A stretch of 64,000 bases of DNA from NCBI RefSeq assembly GCF_016887565.1, contig NZ_CP069396.1:3561001-3625000 (forward strand), in the 5' to 3' direction. The translations under genes and the position numbers were made by a program. The notes under the pieces are model-generated. The model had not been told where the DNA came from, ran no database searches, and saw only the letters and a list, made by a program, of their open reading frames with translations. This stretch comes from Archangium violaceum (GTDB taxonomy: Bacteria; Myxococcota; Myxococcia; Myxococcales; Myxococcaceae). Below are positions 24,887 through 29,070 of the stretch, one piece after another; positions within the stretch are counted from its first letter, which is position 1, and each line of letters begins with the position of its first letter.

Positions 24887-25975
24887 TCACGGCCCGCGGG
24901 GCAGGCCCCTGCCGGTGACGAGGTACACGGCGAAGCTGCCCAGCCAGTGTCCGCCCTCGTAGTGCGCGCCCGTCACGGCCTGGAGCCCCGCCTCGCGGTG
25001 GAGCTTCGCCGTGGCCCGGAGCGCGCGCAGCCGCTTGTCCTGGGGCGGCAGGCCCGCGGCGATCCCCTCCAGCATCCACGCCCGGCTCAGGTTCAATCCG
25101 TCCAGGTGCGCCAGCTTCGGATCCGTCGGATCCGTCACCACCGCCGGCGCGAGCCAGGCCGTCGAGCCGTTGGAGGGAATCTCCGGCAGGAAGTCCCGCA
25201 GCCACGTGGCGAAGCGCTCCGGGGGGAGGATGCGCCTCATCAGGTCCGCCTCGGCGATGCACGGCGAGAGGAAGTCCTGGCCGCCGGGCTCGTACGCGAG
25301 CGGGCACCGGCGGTCCTTCCCGTAGAACGCCTCCACCCGCGTCTTCAGCAACTGCTCCATGTCGCTGTCCCGGGCCTGCCGCGCCCAGTCCAGGATGAGC
25401 CCGAAGGCGAAGGCCGTCTGGTCGTGCTCCCCCACGCGGATGGGCCGCGACAGCTTGGGGAGCCACTCGCGGATCCGCCCGGCCGCGCGCTCCTCCAGGG
25501 GCCTGAGCGTGGTGGCCCACTCGCGCGCCTGGGGATCGTCCCACTCCCTCAGCTCCGCCGAGAGCTGGAGCAGCCACGCCAGACCATAGGGGCGCTCGAA
25601 GGAGACCCGGCCCGGTCCGCTCAGGTAGCGCGTCTCCGCCTCGATGTTCGCGGGCGTCAGGCTCCTGGCCACCGCCTCGCGGGCACGCGGAGCGAAGGGC
25701 GCCTCCGGAAACGTCCGCGCCAGCCGCACCAGCAGCCAGTGCCCGTGGACGGAGGAGTGCCAGTCGTAGCAGCCGTAGAAGGCGGGGGTGAGCTCCCGGG
25801 GCGGGCGCGCATCCGCGTCACCACTCAGCACGTGGGCGATCTTGTTCGGGTACTCCCGATGGACGCACGAGAGCGCGAGCTCCGCGAAGCGCGCGGCGGC
25901 GTCGGCACCGAACTCCGGGGGCGGGGGCGTGCTGGCGGTGACCATGCCGTAGCTCAGCAGGAGAGAAAGGAGCAT
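24887..25975 (-). CDS. DUF2891-family exported protein
   Basis: The 362-aa protein has a short signal-like start (MLLSLLLSYGMVTAST) and DUF2891 features: FAELALSCVHREYPNKIAH, FYGCYDWHSSVHGHW, VGEHDQTAFAFGL, GGQDFLSPCIAEADLM and a late GAHYEGGHWLGSFAVYL. The conserved His/Trp/Glu residues resemble an alpha-alpha barrel enzyme, but no activity is known to me. ATG 25975 is chosen because the signal follows it; the frame remains open upstream without coding features. Confidence 0.85.
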   Translation of the reverse strand: MLLSLLLSYGMVTASTPPPPEFGADAAARFAELALSCVHREYPNKIAHVLSGDADARPPRELTPAFYGCYDWHSSVHGHWLLVRLARTFPEAPFAPRAREAVARSLTPANIEAETRYLSGPGRVSFERPYGLAWLLQLSAELREWDDPQAREWATTLRPLEERAAGRIREWLPKLSRPIRVGEHDQTAFAFGLILDWARQARDSDMEQLLKTRVEAFYGKDRRCPLAYEPGGQDFLSPCIAEADLMRRILPPERFATWLRDFLPEIPSNGSTAWLAPAVVTDPTDPKLAHLDGLNLSRAWMLEGIAAGLPPQDKRLRALRATAKLHREAGLQAVTGAHYEGGHWLGSFAVYLVTGRGLPRGP

Positions 25976-26019: not shown

Positions 26020-27846
26020 CTACCGCACCAGCTTGAGCCCGAGCGTGAGCGGCCACAGCGGCCCGGACTCGCGGGCCCTCAAGGCATACGCCAGGAGATC
26101 CTCCGCCATGCCGACGAAGCTGGTGTTGACCTCGTCCACGAGCGACAGGGCCCGCTGCTCCTCCTCCGGCGTCCACGCGTGCGAGGCGATCAGCGCCCGG
26201 ATTCCCTTCTCCATCAGCTGCTCGTGCGCGTCCTCCAGATCCTGGTGGGGCTGGCCGAAGTAGAAGAGCGGCTTGCCCGTCCGGGCCGTGAACTCCTGGC
26301 CCGCCTGCCGGAACCGGCTGAAGCCCACGTCCGAGGCGGCCTCGACGGCCTCCAGGATGACCAGACGCTGGATGGGGTTCGCCTCGCGCACCATGCTCAT
26401 GAGCTTGTTGATGAGCTGGCGCGTCTTCGCGCAGTGGTCTCCCCAGAGCAGGCTCAGCGAGTCCACCAGGTCCACGCGCCCGTTGATCCCCAGGGTCTCC
26501 ACGTCCCGCATGAAGAACTCCCAGTGCTGCTCGTCCACGGTGGTGTGCGCGTTGAGGATCCGTTGGATCTCATCCCGCGAGGAGAGATCCCTCAGGCCGA
26601 ACCTCATCAGGTCCGAGAAGCCCATGGTCATGGGCGCCAGGCAGGGCGCGAAGCCCAGCCGGTGCCGGGGATCGATGCTGCGATCCTCGACGAAGGCGAA
26701 CAGGGGCAGCCGGGCCAGTTCTTGCTTCTTCGTCTCGATGTACTCCAGGACCCGATTCATGTGCGGCCTCGTCGTCGCGGCTCCGTATGCCTCCGGGGCC
26801 AGATAGAAGGTGGTACGCGCCTGGCCCCGCTGGTGTCGCAGGGATGCCCACTGGACGAGGCCCCGCCCCGCTTCGAGCGGGCGGTCCGTGATGGACGCCA
26901 ACACCTGTTCGAAGAGGCCCCGATCCCGTGGAGCGAGGACGTGGCGGATGGCTCGTACCGACTGCAGATCATCCTCCACATAGGCACGCAGGGGGAAGTG
27001 GAGGGTGGAGCTGAAGGGGCGCCCGGCGTCGTCCGAGGTGAAGGCGAAGCAGGTCAACGGGGGCCGGGCCGTGAAGGGCCCCTCTCCCCCGCTCAGCGAC
27101 CGGCAGAACGTGCGCGGCTCACCCGGCACGTACTCTCCTCCCCGGGACAGCACCCCCTCGAGCTCCTCCACGGTGGCGTCCTGGTGCGCCACGTACAGCT
27201 TCACGCGCGCCGCCGGGCCCGCCGACAGGTCCAGCGAGAAGTAGACGAGCCGGTCCTTCGCGCCGCGGCGCATCACCTCCTGGGTGATGAATCGCCAGGA
27301 GCCCGTGAAGCCGAGCCGGCCCAGTGCCTCCTGGATCAGCGCGGACTCCTGCCCGTCTCCCCGTGCCCTCGGATTCAGGTACACCTTGAAATCCGGTTTG
27401 CCGCCTGCCTTCAGGCCGAACGCGTGCCACAGGGAGAAGCTCGCCTCGGGGTTGCGCGGCTCGAACAGCTCCCTCACTCGCTCGAGCCGCTCCAGGGTGA
27501 TGTGGGCCGCGCGTTGCAGTCGCTCGCACAGCGCCAGCCCATCCACCCAGCTCGACTGGAGCGTGGTGGGTTGTCCTTGCGCCTCCACCAGGAAGCGCAC
27601 CTCGGGGGTGCGGCCATCCAGCGCGAGTGACAACTCATAGGGCGAGTGGTCATCGGTGATGTCGGAGGCCCAGGAGGGCTCCGTTCCAATGCGCCGCTGT
27701 CCCCAGGGGCTCGTCAGCAGGTCGAAGAACTTCAGGACCGTTCGCGTATCCGCTTCCGCGAAGCCGACGGCGCGACACATCGCCGTGAGCTTCGCCGAAC
27801 CAAACGCATGGAACGTTTGTGACGCAATGCGCGCTCGCGCCTGCAT
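26020..27846 (-). CDS. Fusion: DMATS-type aromatic prenyltransferase domain + putative heme-oxygenase-like metal domain
   Basis: This 608-aa protein has no signal peptide. Residues about 45-365 resemble ABBA-fold indole prenyltransferases of the tryptophan dimethylallyltransferase family: EPSWASDITDDHSPYELSL with Glu71 at the place of the indole-binding Glu, PDFKVYLNPRARG, VKLYVAHQDAT and RTTFYLAPEAYG give the basic/Tyr shield for the prenyl diphosphate. Residues about 370-595 are all-helical and resemble the heme-oxygenase-like oxidase/TenA group, with candidate ligands Glu439, His441, Glu499/Glu502, His534, Glu538 and His541 (VDEQHW, HQDLEDAHEQ). The ATG has an AGGGAG site. It lies 111 bp after the 2OG oxygenase gene on the same strand. 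The domain calls are by eye; the C-terminal one is less certain. Confidence 0.75.
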   Translation of the reverse strand: MQARARIASQTFHAFGSAKLTAMCRAVGFAEADTRTVLKFFDLLTSPWGQRRIGTEPSWASDITDDHSPYELSLALDGRTPEVRFLVEAQGQPTTLQSSWVDGLALCERLQRAAHITLERLERVRELFEPRNPEASFSLWHAFGLKAGGKPDFKVYLNPRARGDGQESALIQEALGRLGFTGSWRFITQEVMRRGAKDRLVYFSLDLSAGPAARVKLYVAHQDATVEELEGVLSRGGEYVPGEPRTFCRSLSGGEGPFTARPPLTCFAFTSDDAGRPFSSTLHFPLRAYVEDDLQSVRAIRHVLAPRDRGLFEQVLASITDRPLEAGRGLVQWASLRHQRGQARTTFYLAPEAYGAATTRPHMNRVLEYIETKKQELARLPLFAFVEDRSIDPRHRLGFAPCLAPMTMGFSDLMRFGLRDLSSRDEIQRILNAHTTVDEQHWEFFMRDVETLGINGRVDLVDSLSLLWGDHCAKTRQLINKLMSMVREANPIQRLVILEAVEAASDVGFSRFRQAGQEFTARTGKPLFYFGQPHQDLEDAHEQLMEKGIRALIASHAWTPEEEQRALSLVDEVNTSFVGMAEDLLAYALRARESGPLWPLTLGLKLVR

Positions 27847-27957
27847 GGGTCACTCCCTGCGAACGATTTCGGAGACGTAAGGCCCGCAACCGGACGCGGA
27901 ACTATCCTTACATCAGAAATGGTTTTCGGGGAGTGGGTTCGTGCTCATGCGCCCGGT

Positions 27958-29070
27958 CTACTTCTCCGAGCCCTCCGCGCGCATGCGGTTGAGCCGATCG
28001 TAGTGACGGTAGCCCAGCTGGGAGAGTGCGCTCTGGGGCGCCAGTCCAATGTCCACCAACGTCTTGATGTCGTAGGTGCCCGCGAGCACCGGCGGCGCGT
28101 AGTCGCGGACCGCATCAGGCGTACGGAACTTTTCCAATGGGAAGAGTATGTGACTGGTGTGCACGTGCATGAAGTGGGCGGCGGACTGACGAGACCAGGC
28201 CGGCACGCCGGGGGCGGTGATGACGTGCGGCGTCGCGAGAAACGTACCGCCTGTGAGGATTTCCAACTGCTGGCCCACCTGCGCGACGATGCAGCCGGCT
28301 GGAGCCGTGCCGCGAACCATGTGTCCTTTGGGATCTTCCGGCGTCGCGCGCGTGCGGAGGTAGAGCCCGCTCTTGTCATCGGGCCTCGGGGCCGGGCGCC
28401 CGCTCGGATCGAGGAAGCGCCCACCGGGCAGGAGCGTGAGCAGGTTGAAGTCGGTGTGCTCCTCACCCCAGACGATGTCTGTGTTCACCTGGGAGGCATT
28501 GAGGGGCAGGTAGTGCAGCGCGCGCGTGACGTGGGGGCCGCGCTGGCACAGGTTGGCGAAGGTCGGCTCCGGCAGCCCGAGCGCCACCGCCGCGCCGCGC
28601 AGCAGCTGGAGCCCCGCCTCGTGGAGTGAGCGGCCGAGCGTGAGGAAGCCCTCCTGGAAGTACGGGGGCGCATCGGAGGGCCACACGTTCTCCGGGTAGA
28701 TCTGGGGGAACTCGAGCGCGGACGTCTCGTCGGCCGGGTAGGGGGCGACGAAGTAGCACTCCTTGAAGTCCGGCTGGCCCTTGCCGGCGACGGCCACCTC
28801 GGTGTTCGGAGGCGTCCAGCCGCGCTGGTACCAGATGTCCGCACGGCCATAGGGCCGCTTGGCGGCCTCCGGGCGAGCGACGAAGGCGCTGAACGCGTCA
28901 TAGAAGCGCTCGAGTGCCTGGGGGTCGATGCCGTGGTTCTTCACGTACACGAGGCCGAAGACGCCGAAGGCCTCGCGGAGCGCCGCCGCGCCGCGCTCGA
29001 CGCGGGCGGGATCGCCTGAAGAGAGATCGGTGAGGTCGACAGTGGGGATGTTCATCGGGGTCTCAGCCAT
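27958..29070 (-). CDS. 2-oxoglutarate/Fe(II) oxygenase of the isopenicillin N synthase family
   Basis: The 370-aa cytosolic enzyme has the DIOX_N-type start IPTVDLTDLSSGDP and FGLVYVKNHGID, followed by the jelly-roll core. Iron ligands are His205 and Asp207 (EEHTDFNLL) and His282 (ATPHVI). The 2-oxoglutarate-binding RxS motif is Arg294-Gln-Ser296, so it should use 2-oxoglutarate rather than act as an IPNS. The substrate is unknown. It is the first gene of a likely two-gene unit with the prenyltransferase fusion downstream. Confidence 0.88.
   Translation of the reverse strand: MAETPMNIPTVDLTDLSSGDPARVERGAAALREAFGVFGLVYVKNHGIDPQALERFYDAFSAFVARPEAAKRPYGRADIWYQRGWTPPNTEVAVAGKGQPDFKECYFVAPYPADETSALEFPQIYPENVWPSDAPPYFQEGFLTLGRSLHEAGLQLLRGAAVALGLPEPTFANLCQRGPHVTRALHYLPLNASQVNTDIVWGEEHTDFNLLTLLPGGRFLDPSGRPAPRPDDKSGLYLRTRATPEDPKGHMVRGTAPAGCIVAQVGQQLEILTGGTFLATPHVITAPGVPAWSRQSAAHFMHVHTSHILFPLEKFRTPDAVRDYAPPVLAGTYDIKTLVDIGLAPQSALSQLGYRHYDRLNRMRAEGSEK

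What the first reader, a model, noticed from the sequence alone, without database searches (positions are those of the whole stretch)
26020..27846. DMATS-type indole prenyltransferase fused to a heme-oxygenase-like putative metal domain
Both halves are recognisable by motif: a Glu71-centred indole site with basic/Tyr shield, then a helical domain with Glu/His ligands as in diiron heme-oxygenase-like oxidases. I know of no described enzyme with this pairing. It could prenylate an aromatic substrate and then oxidise it (N-oxygenation, C-C cleavage or desaturation).
Basis: partly seen in the sequence, partly recalled or inferred. Interest (0 to 1): 0.8.

Follow-up and report, generated by a model that had tools for sequence, protein, structure and literature searches.

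The report
Tryptophan prenyltransferase fused to nitrile-synthase-like oxidase
A soil bacterium carries one protein that joins an enzyme which hangs a prenyl group on tryptophan to an iron enzyme closely related to AetD, which rebuilds tryptophan's side chain into a nitrile, so a single protein may make a prenylated indole nitrile, a route not described in the papers searched.

Summary
Residues about 1-350 are a bacterial DMATS-type tryptophan prenyltransferase. Residues about 364-608 are a haem-oxygenase-like diiron oxidase (HDO) whose one close relative of known structure is AetD, which turns (bromo)tryptophan into indole-3-carbonitrile. All six AetD iron ligands and the substrate-contacting tyrosine are present; the predicted fold superposes on AetD at 1.5 A. 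The fusion is conserved in a second species; in two other genomes of the genus the halves are separate genes overlapping by ATGA. Active-site position 142 is Ala/Gly in 6 of 6 AetD-like domains linked to a DMATS, against 1 of 88 others, as expected if they take ring-prenylated tryptophan. Best reading: Trp + DMAPP -> 5- or 6-prenyl-Trp -> prenylated indole-3-carbonitrile; SktA-type skatole-plus-cyanide chemistry is the main rival. Relatives include reversed fusions whose AetD-like domain has lost its ligand set, and a different DMATS-HDO fusion in the same genome. No paper describing a prenyltransferase-HDO enzyme was found. Product chemistry is inferred.

The parts
26020..27846 (-). Whole fused gene, 608 aa, ATG to stop
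   Evidence: translated; 90% identical ortholog with the same architecture
27851..27858 (-). AGGGAGTG, ribosome-binding-like site ending 4 nt before the ATG
   Evidence: read; inference from sequence
26797..27846 (-). DMATS-type tryptophan prenyltransferase domain, residues 1-350; ten predicted strands
27634..27636 (-). Glu71, aligned with the indole N1 glutamate of indole prenyltransferases (Glu106 TleC / Glu89 MpnD)
   Evidence: motif; role from PMC4786772 passages
26758..26796 (-). Linker residues 351-363 (PEAYGAATTRPHM), pLDDT under 50 in the model; Met363 corresponds to the start codon of the separate AetD-like gene in G043 and G046
26023..26757 (-). AetD-like haem-oxygenase-like diiron oxidase domain, residues 364-608
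26524..26535 (-). Ligands D438 and H441 (AetD D76, H79)
26323..26343 (-). Ligand E502 (AetD E140) with active-site residues A504 (A142) and G508 (I146)
26224..26262 (-). Y529 (AetD Y167, carboxylate contact) and ligands H534, E538, H541 (HX3EX2H)
   Evidence: roles from PMC11611611 passages

Best explanation
A bifunctional biosynthetic enzyme. The N-terminal barrel transfers a dimethylallyl group from DMAPP to the benzene ring of L-tryptophan, most likely C6 or C5. The C-terminal AetD-type diiron domain then binds the prenyl-tryptophan through its amine and carboxylate on Fe1, activates O2, attacks the beta-carbon and rearranges the aminopropionate side chain to a nitrile, giving a prenylated indole-3-carbonitrile. 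Shown by computation: both domains, the full ligand set, the fold, conservation as a fusion, and repeated pairing of DMATS with AetD-like proteins. Inferred: the substrate (prenyl-Trp), the order, the ring position and the nitrile product.
For: C half: AetD is the only close solved relative (6.1e-38; Z 30.9, 1.5 A over 232 residues, next family BesC at 16.3). All six AetD ligands plus Y167, F48 and H72 are kept. N half: best structural matches are Trp 6-DMATS (6zry, 6zrx, PriB, IptA) and Trp 5-DMATS (6zs0). Pairing: one-gene fusion in two genomes, ATGA-overlapping gene pair in two more; in G083 an intact AetD-like gene lies 1.3 kb from a DMATS (itself a reversed fusion), in G080 4.4 kb from a stand-alone DMATS. 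Order: in AetD the indole is clamped by F44 and I146 (PMC10654658 passages), and A142 is one of the active-site differences from SktA named in a review (PMC13108848 passages). In DMATS-linked AetD-like domains 142 is A/G in 6 of 6, against 1 of 88 not seen linked (the one, L041, lies near a contig end in a genome that also has DMATS genes of this clade). Position 146 is G/A in 6 of 6 linked rows, while the 83 rows outside the family f1 have mostly L, M or F (64 of 83): a roomier pocket. Position 142 is Ala also in the nitrile synthase AetD itself but Thr in SktA.
Against: AetD and SktA, which give different products from nearly the same substrate, both fall in the cyanobacterial part of the tree, and the window domain lies outside both, so the product cannot be read from kinship. 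Position 214 is Phe as in SktA, not Ser as in AetD; position 139 is Val, matching neither. The position-142 pattern rests on few evolutionary events (two clades). Position 146 is also small (Ala) in the six unlinked rows of the same bacterial family and small in 10 of 83 others (A 8, S 1, G 1), so it separates less well. The DMATS of G080 belongs to the other DMATS group. No exporter or tailoring gene is evidently part of a cluster. The full-length model is of modest confidence (pLDDT 73.1) and says nothing firm about domain contacts.
Confidence: 0.5

Rival explanations
1. Same prenylation, but the diiron domain works like SktA: it cuts the side chain, releasing cyanide (and bicarbonate, as I recall), and leaves a prenylated skatole.
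For: SktA is of the same family with a predicted identical ligand set (PMC13108848 passages; cyanide from the title of the SktA paper in its reference list). Position 214 is Phe as in SktA. The probable SktA locus L064 carries T139/T142/F214, though other cyanobacterial rows carry the same three.
Against: Position 142 is Ala as in AetD, not Thr as in SktA and most of the family (82 of the 89 rows not linked and not at a contig edge).
Confidence: 0.17
2. Same prenylation, but the main product is another oxidised side chain: prenyl-indole-3-carbaldehyde (a shunt product of AetD), an oxime, or an N-oxygenated amino acid.
For: AetD itself releases 5,7-dibromo-indole-3-carbaldehyde as a shunt product (PMC11611611 passages). 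HDOs are chemically versatile (PMC13108848 passages).
Against: No specific sequence evidence for it.
Confidence: 0.15
3. The two domains act on separate substrates: the diiron domain uses plain Trp or another amino acid, or works first, and the prenyltransferase takes the oxidised indole.
For: AetD converts unsubstituted L-Trp, less well (PMC10654658 passages). Many DMATS enzymes are broad in acceptor (PMC4786772 passages).
Against: Small residues at 142 and 146 accompany DMATS linkage. The nearest DMATS structures are tryptophan enzymes.
Confidence: 0.12
4. The diiron half is only a scaffold (dimerisation or docking), as may be the case in the reversed relatives where it has lost its ligand set.
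For: None of the six N-terminal AetD-like domains of the reversed fusions L037-L040, L042 and L043 keeps the full ligand set, yet they stay fused to the DMATS.
Against: All six ligands are intact here and in the ortholog, and the domain is under purifying selection, dN/dS 0.36.
Confidence: 0.04
5. Frame-shifted or mis-assembled neighbours read as one protein.
For: In G043 and G046 the same pair are separate genes.
Against: Same continuous frame in two genomes at 92% DNA identity; window from a one-contig genome.
Confidence: 0.02

Closest known systems
AetD, diiron nitrile synthase of aetokthonotoxin biosynthesis (PDB 8twn, 8tww, 8ji2-8ji7)
   Same: Fold (Z 30.9, 1.5 A), six diiron ligands, Y167, F48, A142; about 30% identity over about 230 residues
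   Different: Here fused behind a prenyltransferase; indole clamp I146 and F44 replaced by Gly and Met, S214 by Phe; myxobacterial, not cyanobacterial; product not tested
SktA, diiron skatole synthase (residues described in PMC13108848 passages; sequence not in hand by name)
   Same: Same family and predicted ligands; Phe at 214
   Different: Ala instead of Thr at 142, Val instead of Thr at 139; here fused to a DMATS
Bacterial tryptophan DMATS: 6-DMATS of Micromonospora olivasterospora (6zrx), PriB (5inj), IptA (7w8u), 5-DMATS of Streptomyces coelicolor (6zs0)
   Same: 30-32% identity over about 350 columns, barrel fold, catalytic Glu and KxYLNP / RxKxY motifs
   Different: Those are solved as single prenyltransferases; here a C-terminal diiron domain follows after a short linker
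DMATS-Haem_oxygenas_2 fusion of the same genome (L052: 6459-8456 -) and of G045 and G078, with a like sequence in G081
   Same: DMATS first, HDO second; HX3EX2H motif looks intact by eye in L052
   Different: Its HDO is of another HDO branch (Pfam PF14518, 1.1e-15 in L052), not AetD-like; its DMATS is about 39% identical

Membership tests
AetD/SktA family of HDO enzymes | Sequence kinship over the whole domain | tested here: met
   phmmer 6.1e-38 to AetD; the A1 alignment finds relatives in cyanobacteria, proteobacteria and others
AetD/SktA family of HDO enzymes | Diiron ligands D76, H79, E140, H172, E176, H179 | tested here: met
   all six present as D438, H441, E502, H534, E538, H541
AetD/SktA family of HDO enzymes | Helical haem-oxygenase-like fold | tested here: met
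   model pLDDT 92.9, AetD Z 30.9
Nitrile synthase (AetD function) | Converts a Trp derivative to indole-3-carbonitrile | not testable with these tools
   needs an enzyme assay
Nitrile synthase (AetD function) | Active-site residues M139, A142, S214 that differ from SktA | tested here: inconclusive
   V, A, F: one of three matches AetD, one matches SktA, one neither
DMATS-type aromatic prenyltransferase | Family profile | tested here: met
   Pfam PF11991 63.8 bits against cut-off 25; but NCBIfam TIGR03429 117.2 bits, below its cut-off 163.85
DMATS-type aromatic prenyltransferase | Ten-stranded alpha-beta-beta-alpha barrel | tested here: met
   ten strands in the model, E70-76 to E342-350; top Foldseek hits are DMATS enzymes; confidence moderate
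DMATS-type aromatic prenyltransferase | Catalytic Glu and basic/tyrosine pyrophosphate site | tested here: met
   E71, R84, K154, R214, K216, Y218, R344, Y348 by motif and alignment; assignment of roles partly recalled
DMATS-type aromatic prenyltransferase | Prenylates L-Trp at C5 or C6 | not testable with these tools
   nearest structures are Trp 6- and 5-DMATS

The most novel reading that the evidence does not exclude
One polypeptide converts free L-tryptophan into a ring-prenylated indole-3-carbonitrile by coupling a Friedel-Crafts prenyltransferase to AetD-type diiron chemistry: a one-gene nitrile pathway. In sister lineages the AetD-like domain was instead turned into a ligand-less scaffold fused in front of the prenyltransferase, possibly to dock a separate active copy (AetD itself is a dimer).
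Probability: 0.42. Interest if true: 0.82.

Novelty: new variant of a known kind. Interest (0 to 1): 0.72.

Why it matters
In the papers I saw, AetD-type nitrile chemistry is known from one cyanobacterial toxin pathway, and what decides nitrile against skatole in this family is open. A natural DMATS-AetD fusion names its own likely substrate (prenyl-Trp), is testable with one expressed gene, carries an active-site mark (small residue at 142, with 146) that goes with prenyltransferase linkage, and offers a one-protein biocatalyst for prenylated indole nitriles. The family also shows gene pair, fusion, and reversed fusion with a ligand-less domain side by side.

Tried and rejected
Neighbouring 2-oxoglutarate oxygenase (27958-29070 -) as a pathway partner: rejected. 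It is held at 79% identity or more by 55 of 145 genomes of the order (hand count of the rows), of which 4 (G000, G043, G045, G046) show a DMATS match. In the stretches fetched from G043, G044 and G047 (which show the sel1-repeat gene, the 2OG gene and g29154) and from G046 (sel1 and 2OG), no match to the DMATS, the AetD-like half or DUF2891 was found. So the fusion sits in a variable slot.

Frame artefact: rejected. That script stopped with an error after the fusion numbers, at a comparison with the neighbour gene; that comparison was not obtained.

Reading the product from the tree: fails, since AetD and SktA both lie in the cyanobacterial part; the tool flags AetD as a long branch.

Link to indiacens, prenyl indoles of the myxobacterium Sandaracinus (listing, passages): no genetic link found. 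All 26 genomes with a match, of 195 of the phylum searched, carry the window's own family label f1.

DMATS-HDO fusions outside Myxococcota: not tested (one search failed). Only AetD-like neighbourhoods were scanned there. Of the 80 loci kept of 101 confirmed, a DMATS within the fetched flank was seen in one, L054 (Archangium violaceum); some flanks are cut by contig ends.

Position 218 (G/A in 6 of 6 linked rows, F in six of six unlinked rows of family f1) was not used as evidence: L041 has Trp there, no passage I read names it as a pocket residue, and the alignment near 214-221 is less sure (phmmer put a three-residue gap there).

Rows dropped before counts: rows scoring under 190 bits to the AetD profile (the reversed-fusion domains and the L004-type HDOs), L069 (ligand 179 is Tyr) and one fragment of L072; identical sequences were counted once; 'linked' means same gene or DMATS seen in the fetched flank. 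In one search one fragment was dropped. The structure alignment A2 used 64 of the 85 eligible rows. A3 was discarded because the DMATS row misaligned.

Full report
WHAT IS THERE. The gene is on the minus strand, 27846..26020, 608 aa from ATG, with AGGGAGTG ending 4 nt before the ATG. The genome is a single 13.2-Mb contig.

N-TERMINAL HALF. Pfam Trp_DMAT 2.3e-17; PDB 6-DMATS 6zrx 1.3e-52 over residues 19-363. NCBIfam's DMATS model scores 117.2 bits, under its curated cut-off of 163.85, so it is a divergent member. The full-length model (pLDDT 73.1, six rows) has ten strands in the DMATS half. Foldseek ranks Trp 6-DMATS (6zry, 6zrx, PriB, IptA) and 5-DMATS (6zs0) on top at TM 0.76-0.81 by target length. 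E71 and the basic/tyrosine motifs are present (roles from PMC4786772, passages read, motif mapping partly recalled).

C-TERMINAL HALF. phmmer finds AetD at 6.1e-38; the only other hits listed are two at E 0.025 and 0.49. The AlphaFold2 model from 65 rows has pLDDT 92.9. AetD entries score Z 29.6-30.9 (8tww: 1.5 A over 232 residues); the next family, BesC, scores 16.3. AetD ligands (D76, H79, E140, H172, E176, H179; PMC11611611 and PMC10654658, passages read) correspond to D438, H441, E502, H534, E538 and H541, and Y167 to Y529. F48, the non-ligand residue typical of substrate-triggered HDOs, is F410.

THE FUSION IS REAL AND THE PAIRING RECURS. In 145 genomes of the order (26 with any match), G045 has the same fusion at 90% identity, with linker PEAYGATTTRPHM against PEAYGAATTRPHM here, and dN/dS 0.25 and 0.36 for the halves. 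In G043 and G046 the DMATS stop and the AetD-like start overlap as ATGA, and that start Met aligns with Met363 here (G046 row). In G083 an intact AetD-like gene lies 1.3 kb from a reversed-fusion DMATS, and in G080 4.4 kb from a stand-alone DMATS on the other strand; the latter DMATS groups with the Haem_oxygenas_2 kind, not with the window's. In G081, G082 and G083 six genes have the reverse order, AetD-like then DMATS; none of the six keeps the full ligand set, and HX3EX2H is broken in all six. Their DMATS domains group with the window's and the overlapping pairs' (99/99). A further class, DMATS followed by a Pfam Haem_oxygenas_2 domain, occurs in the window's own genome and in others.

WHO IS THE SUBSTRATE. 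AetD's indole is clamped by F44 and I146 (PMC10654658, passage). A review names M139/A142/S214 against T139/T142/F214 as active-site differences between AetD and a model of SktA (PMC13108848, passage). Among family members with all ligands, 142 is A or G in 6 of 6 linked to a DMATS and in 1 of 88 not seen linked (AetD itself left out of the count). The exception, L041, lies near a contig end in G081, which has DMATS genes of the same clade. Position 146 is G/A in all six linked rows, but also A in the six unlinked rows of family f1; in the other 83 rows it is L, M or F in 64. The Fisher value (8.6e-9) ignores relatedness and should not be taken at face value: the linked rows fall in two clades (L001, L005, L038, L044 with L041; and L009, L010), and L044 is a long branch. 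Still, residue 142 is small where a prenyltransferase is attached, which fits a prenyl-Trp substrate.

WHAT PRODUCT. AetD gives the nitrile with an aldehyde shunt; SktA gives bromoskatole. The window has A142 as AetD, F214 as SktA and V139 as neither, and the tree puts both characterised enzymes in the cyanobacterial part, away from the window. I take the nitrile as most likely, at about one half. The SktA locus is probably L064 (Nostoc punctiforme NIES-2108; organism recalled), which carries T139/T142/F214, as do some other cyanobacterial rows.

SURROUNDINGS. The upstream 2OG oxygenase is a conserved gene of the wider group (55 of 145 genomes at 79% or more), and the syntenic stretches of four other genomes of the genus lack the fusion. 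The downstream DUF2891 gene is of unknown function. So this looks like a one-gene unit in a variable slot, not a cluster.

LITERATURE. No paper held has DMATS and AetD together, none has prenyltransferase, heme oxygenase-like, fusion, tryptophan and diiron together, and the one with AetD and prenyltransferase is a cyanotoxin review seen as a listing only. Two wider searches listed nothing on this pairing, judged by title and abstract start. Searches cover open-licence PMC papers only. Papers cited were seen as passages, none as whole text.

VERDICT. A real, conserved and, as far as searched, undescribed fusion of two known enzyme kinds; mechanism strongly suggested, product not shown.

Noticed in passing
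L037 7765-9693 -, L038 7940-9784 +, L039 7111-8922 -, L040 7073-8923 -, L042 8161-10065 -, L043 8325-10190 +: Reversed fusions: an AetD-derived N-terminal domain without the full diiron ligand set in front of a DMATS. A retained pseudo-enzyme domain, perhaps a docking or dimerisation module for a separate intact AetD-like protein (one is 1.3 kb away in L038).
   Followed up: partly
L052 6459-8456 - (same genome as the window), L045 5898-7814 -, L048 7297-9180 +, and by sequence likeness L047 7599-9365 +: Second kind of DMATS-HDO fusion, with a Haem_oxygenas_2 domain whose HX3EX2H motif looks intact by eye in L052. The same genome thus holds two unlike DMATS-HDO fusions.
   Followed up: partly
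L046 2725-4518 + (G083): Another reversed HDO-DMATS gene, whose HDO is of the L004 branch and keeps all six ligand residues in the alignment.
   Followed up: no
e.g. L003 728-1417 +, L051 6291-6884 +, L038 10338-10934 -: A roughly 200-aa family (no Pfam or NCBIfam match for the two members tried) lies near stand-alone AetD-like and L004-type HDO genes of the window's bacterial family: 20 of 21 loci in hand by hand count (three of them supplied the queries; the miss, L041, is near a contig end). No match in L034-L036, the ortholog fusion and the overlapping pairs; the window itself was not in that search beyond L001.
   Followed up: partly
L039 1439-2638 - and 5637-7064 +, L043 12532-13731 + and 13728-15245 -, L038 11901-13289 -: Some reversed fusions sit near a tryptophanase-like lyase, a styrene-monooxygenase-like flavoenzyme and a P450: perhaps a fuller indole cluster.
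   Followed up: no
L003 1429-2298 - (G000:C1:6027945-6028628): Stand-alone AetD-like gene of the window's genome with Thr at position 142 and no DMATS in the fetched 16 kb.
   Followed up: partly
window 24887-25975 -: DUF2891 protein just downstream of the fusion, with a signal-peptide-like start by eye; no match in the syntenic stretches of four other genomes of the genus. Function unknown.
   Followed up: no
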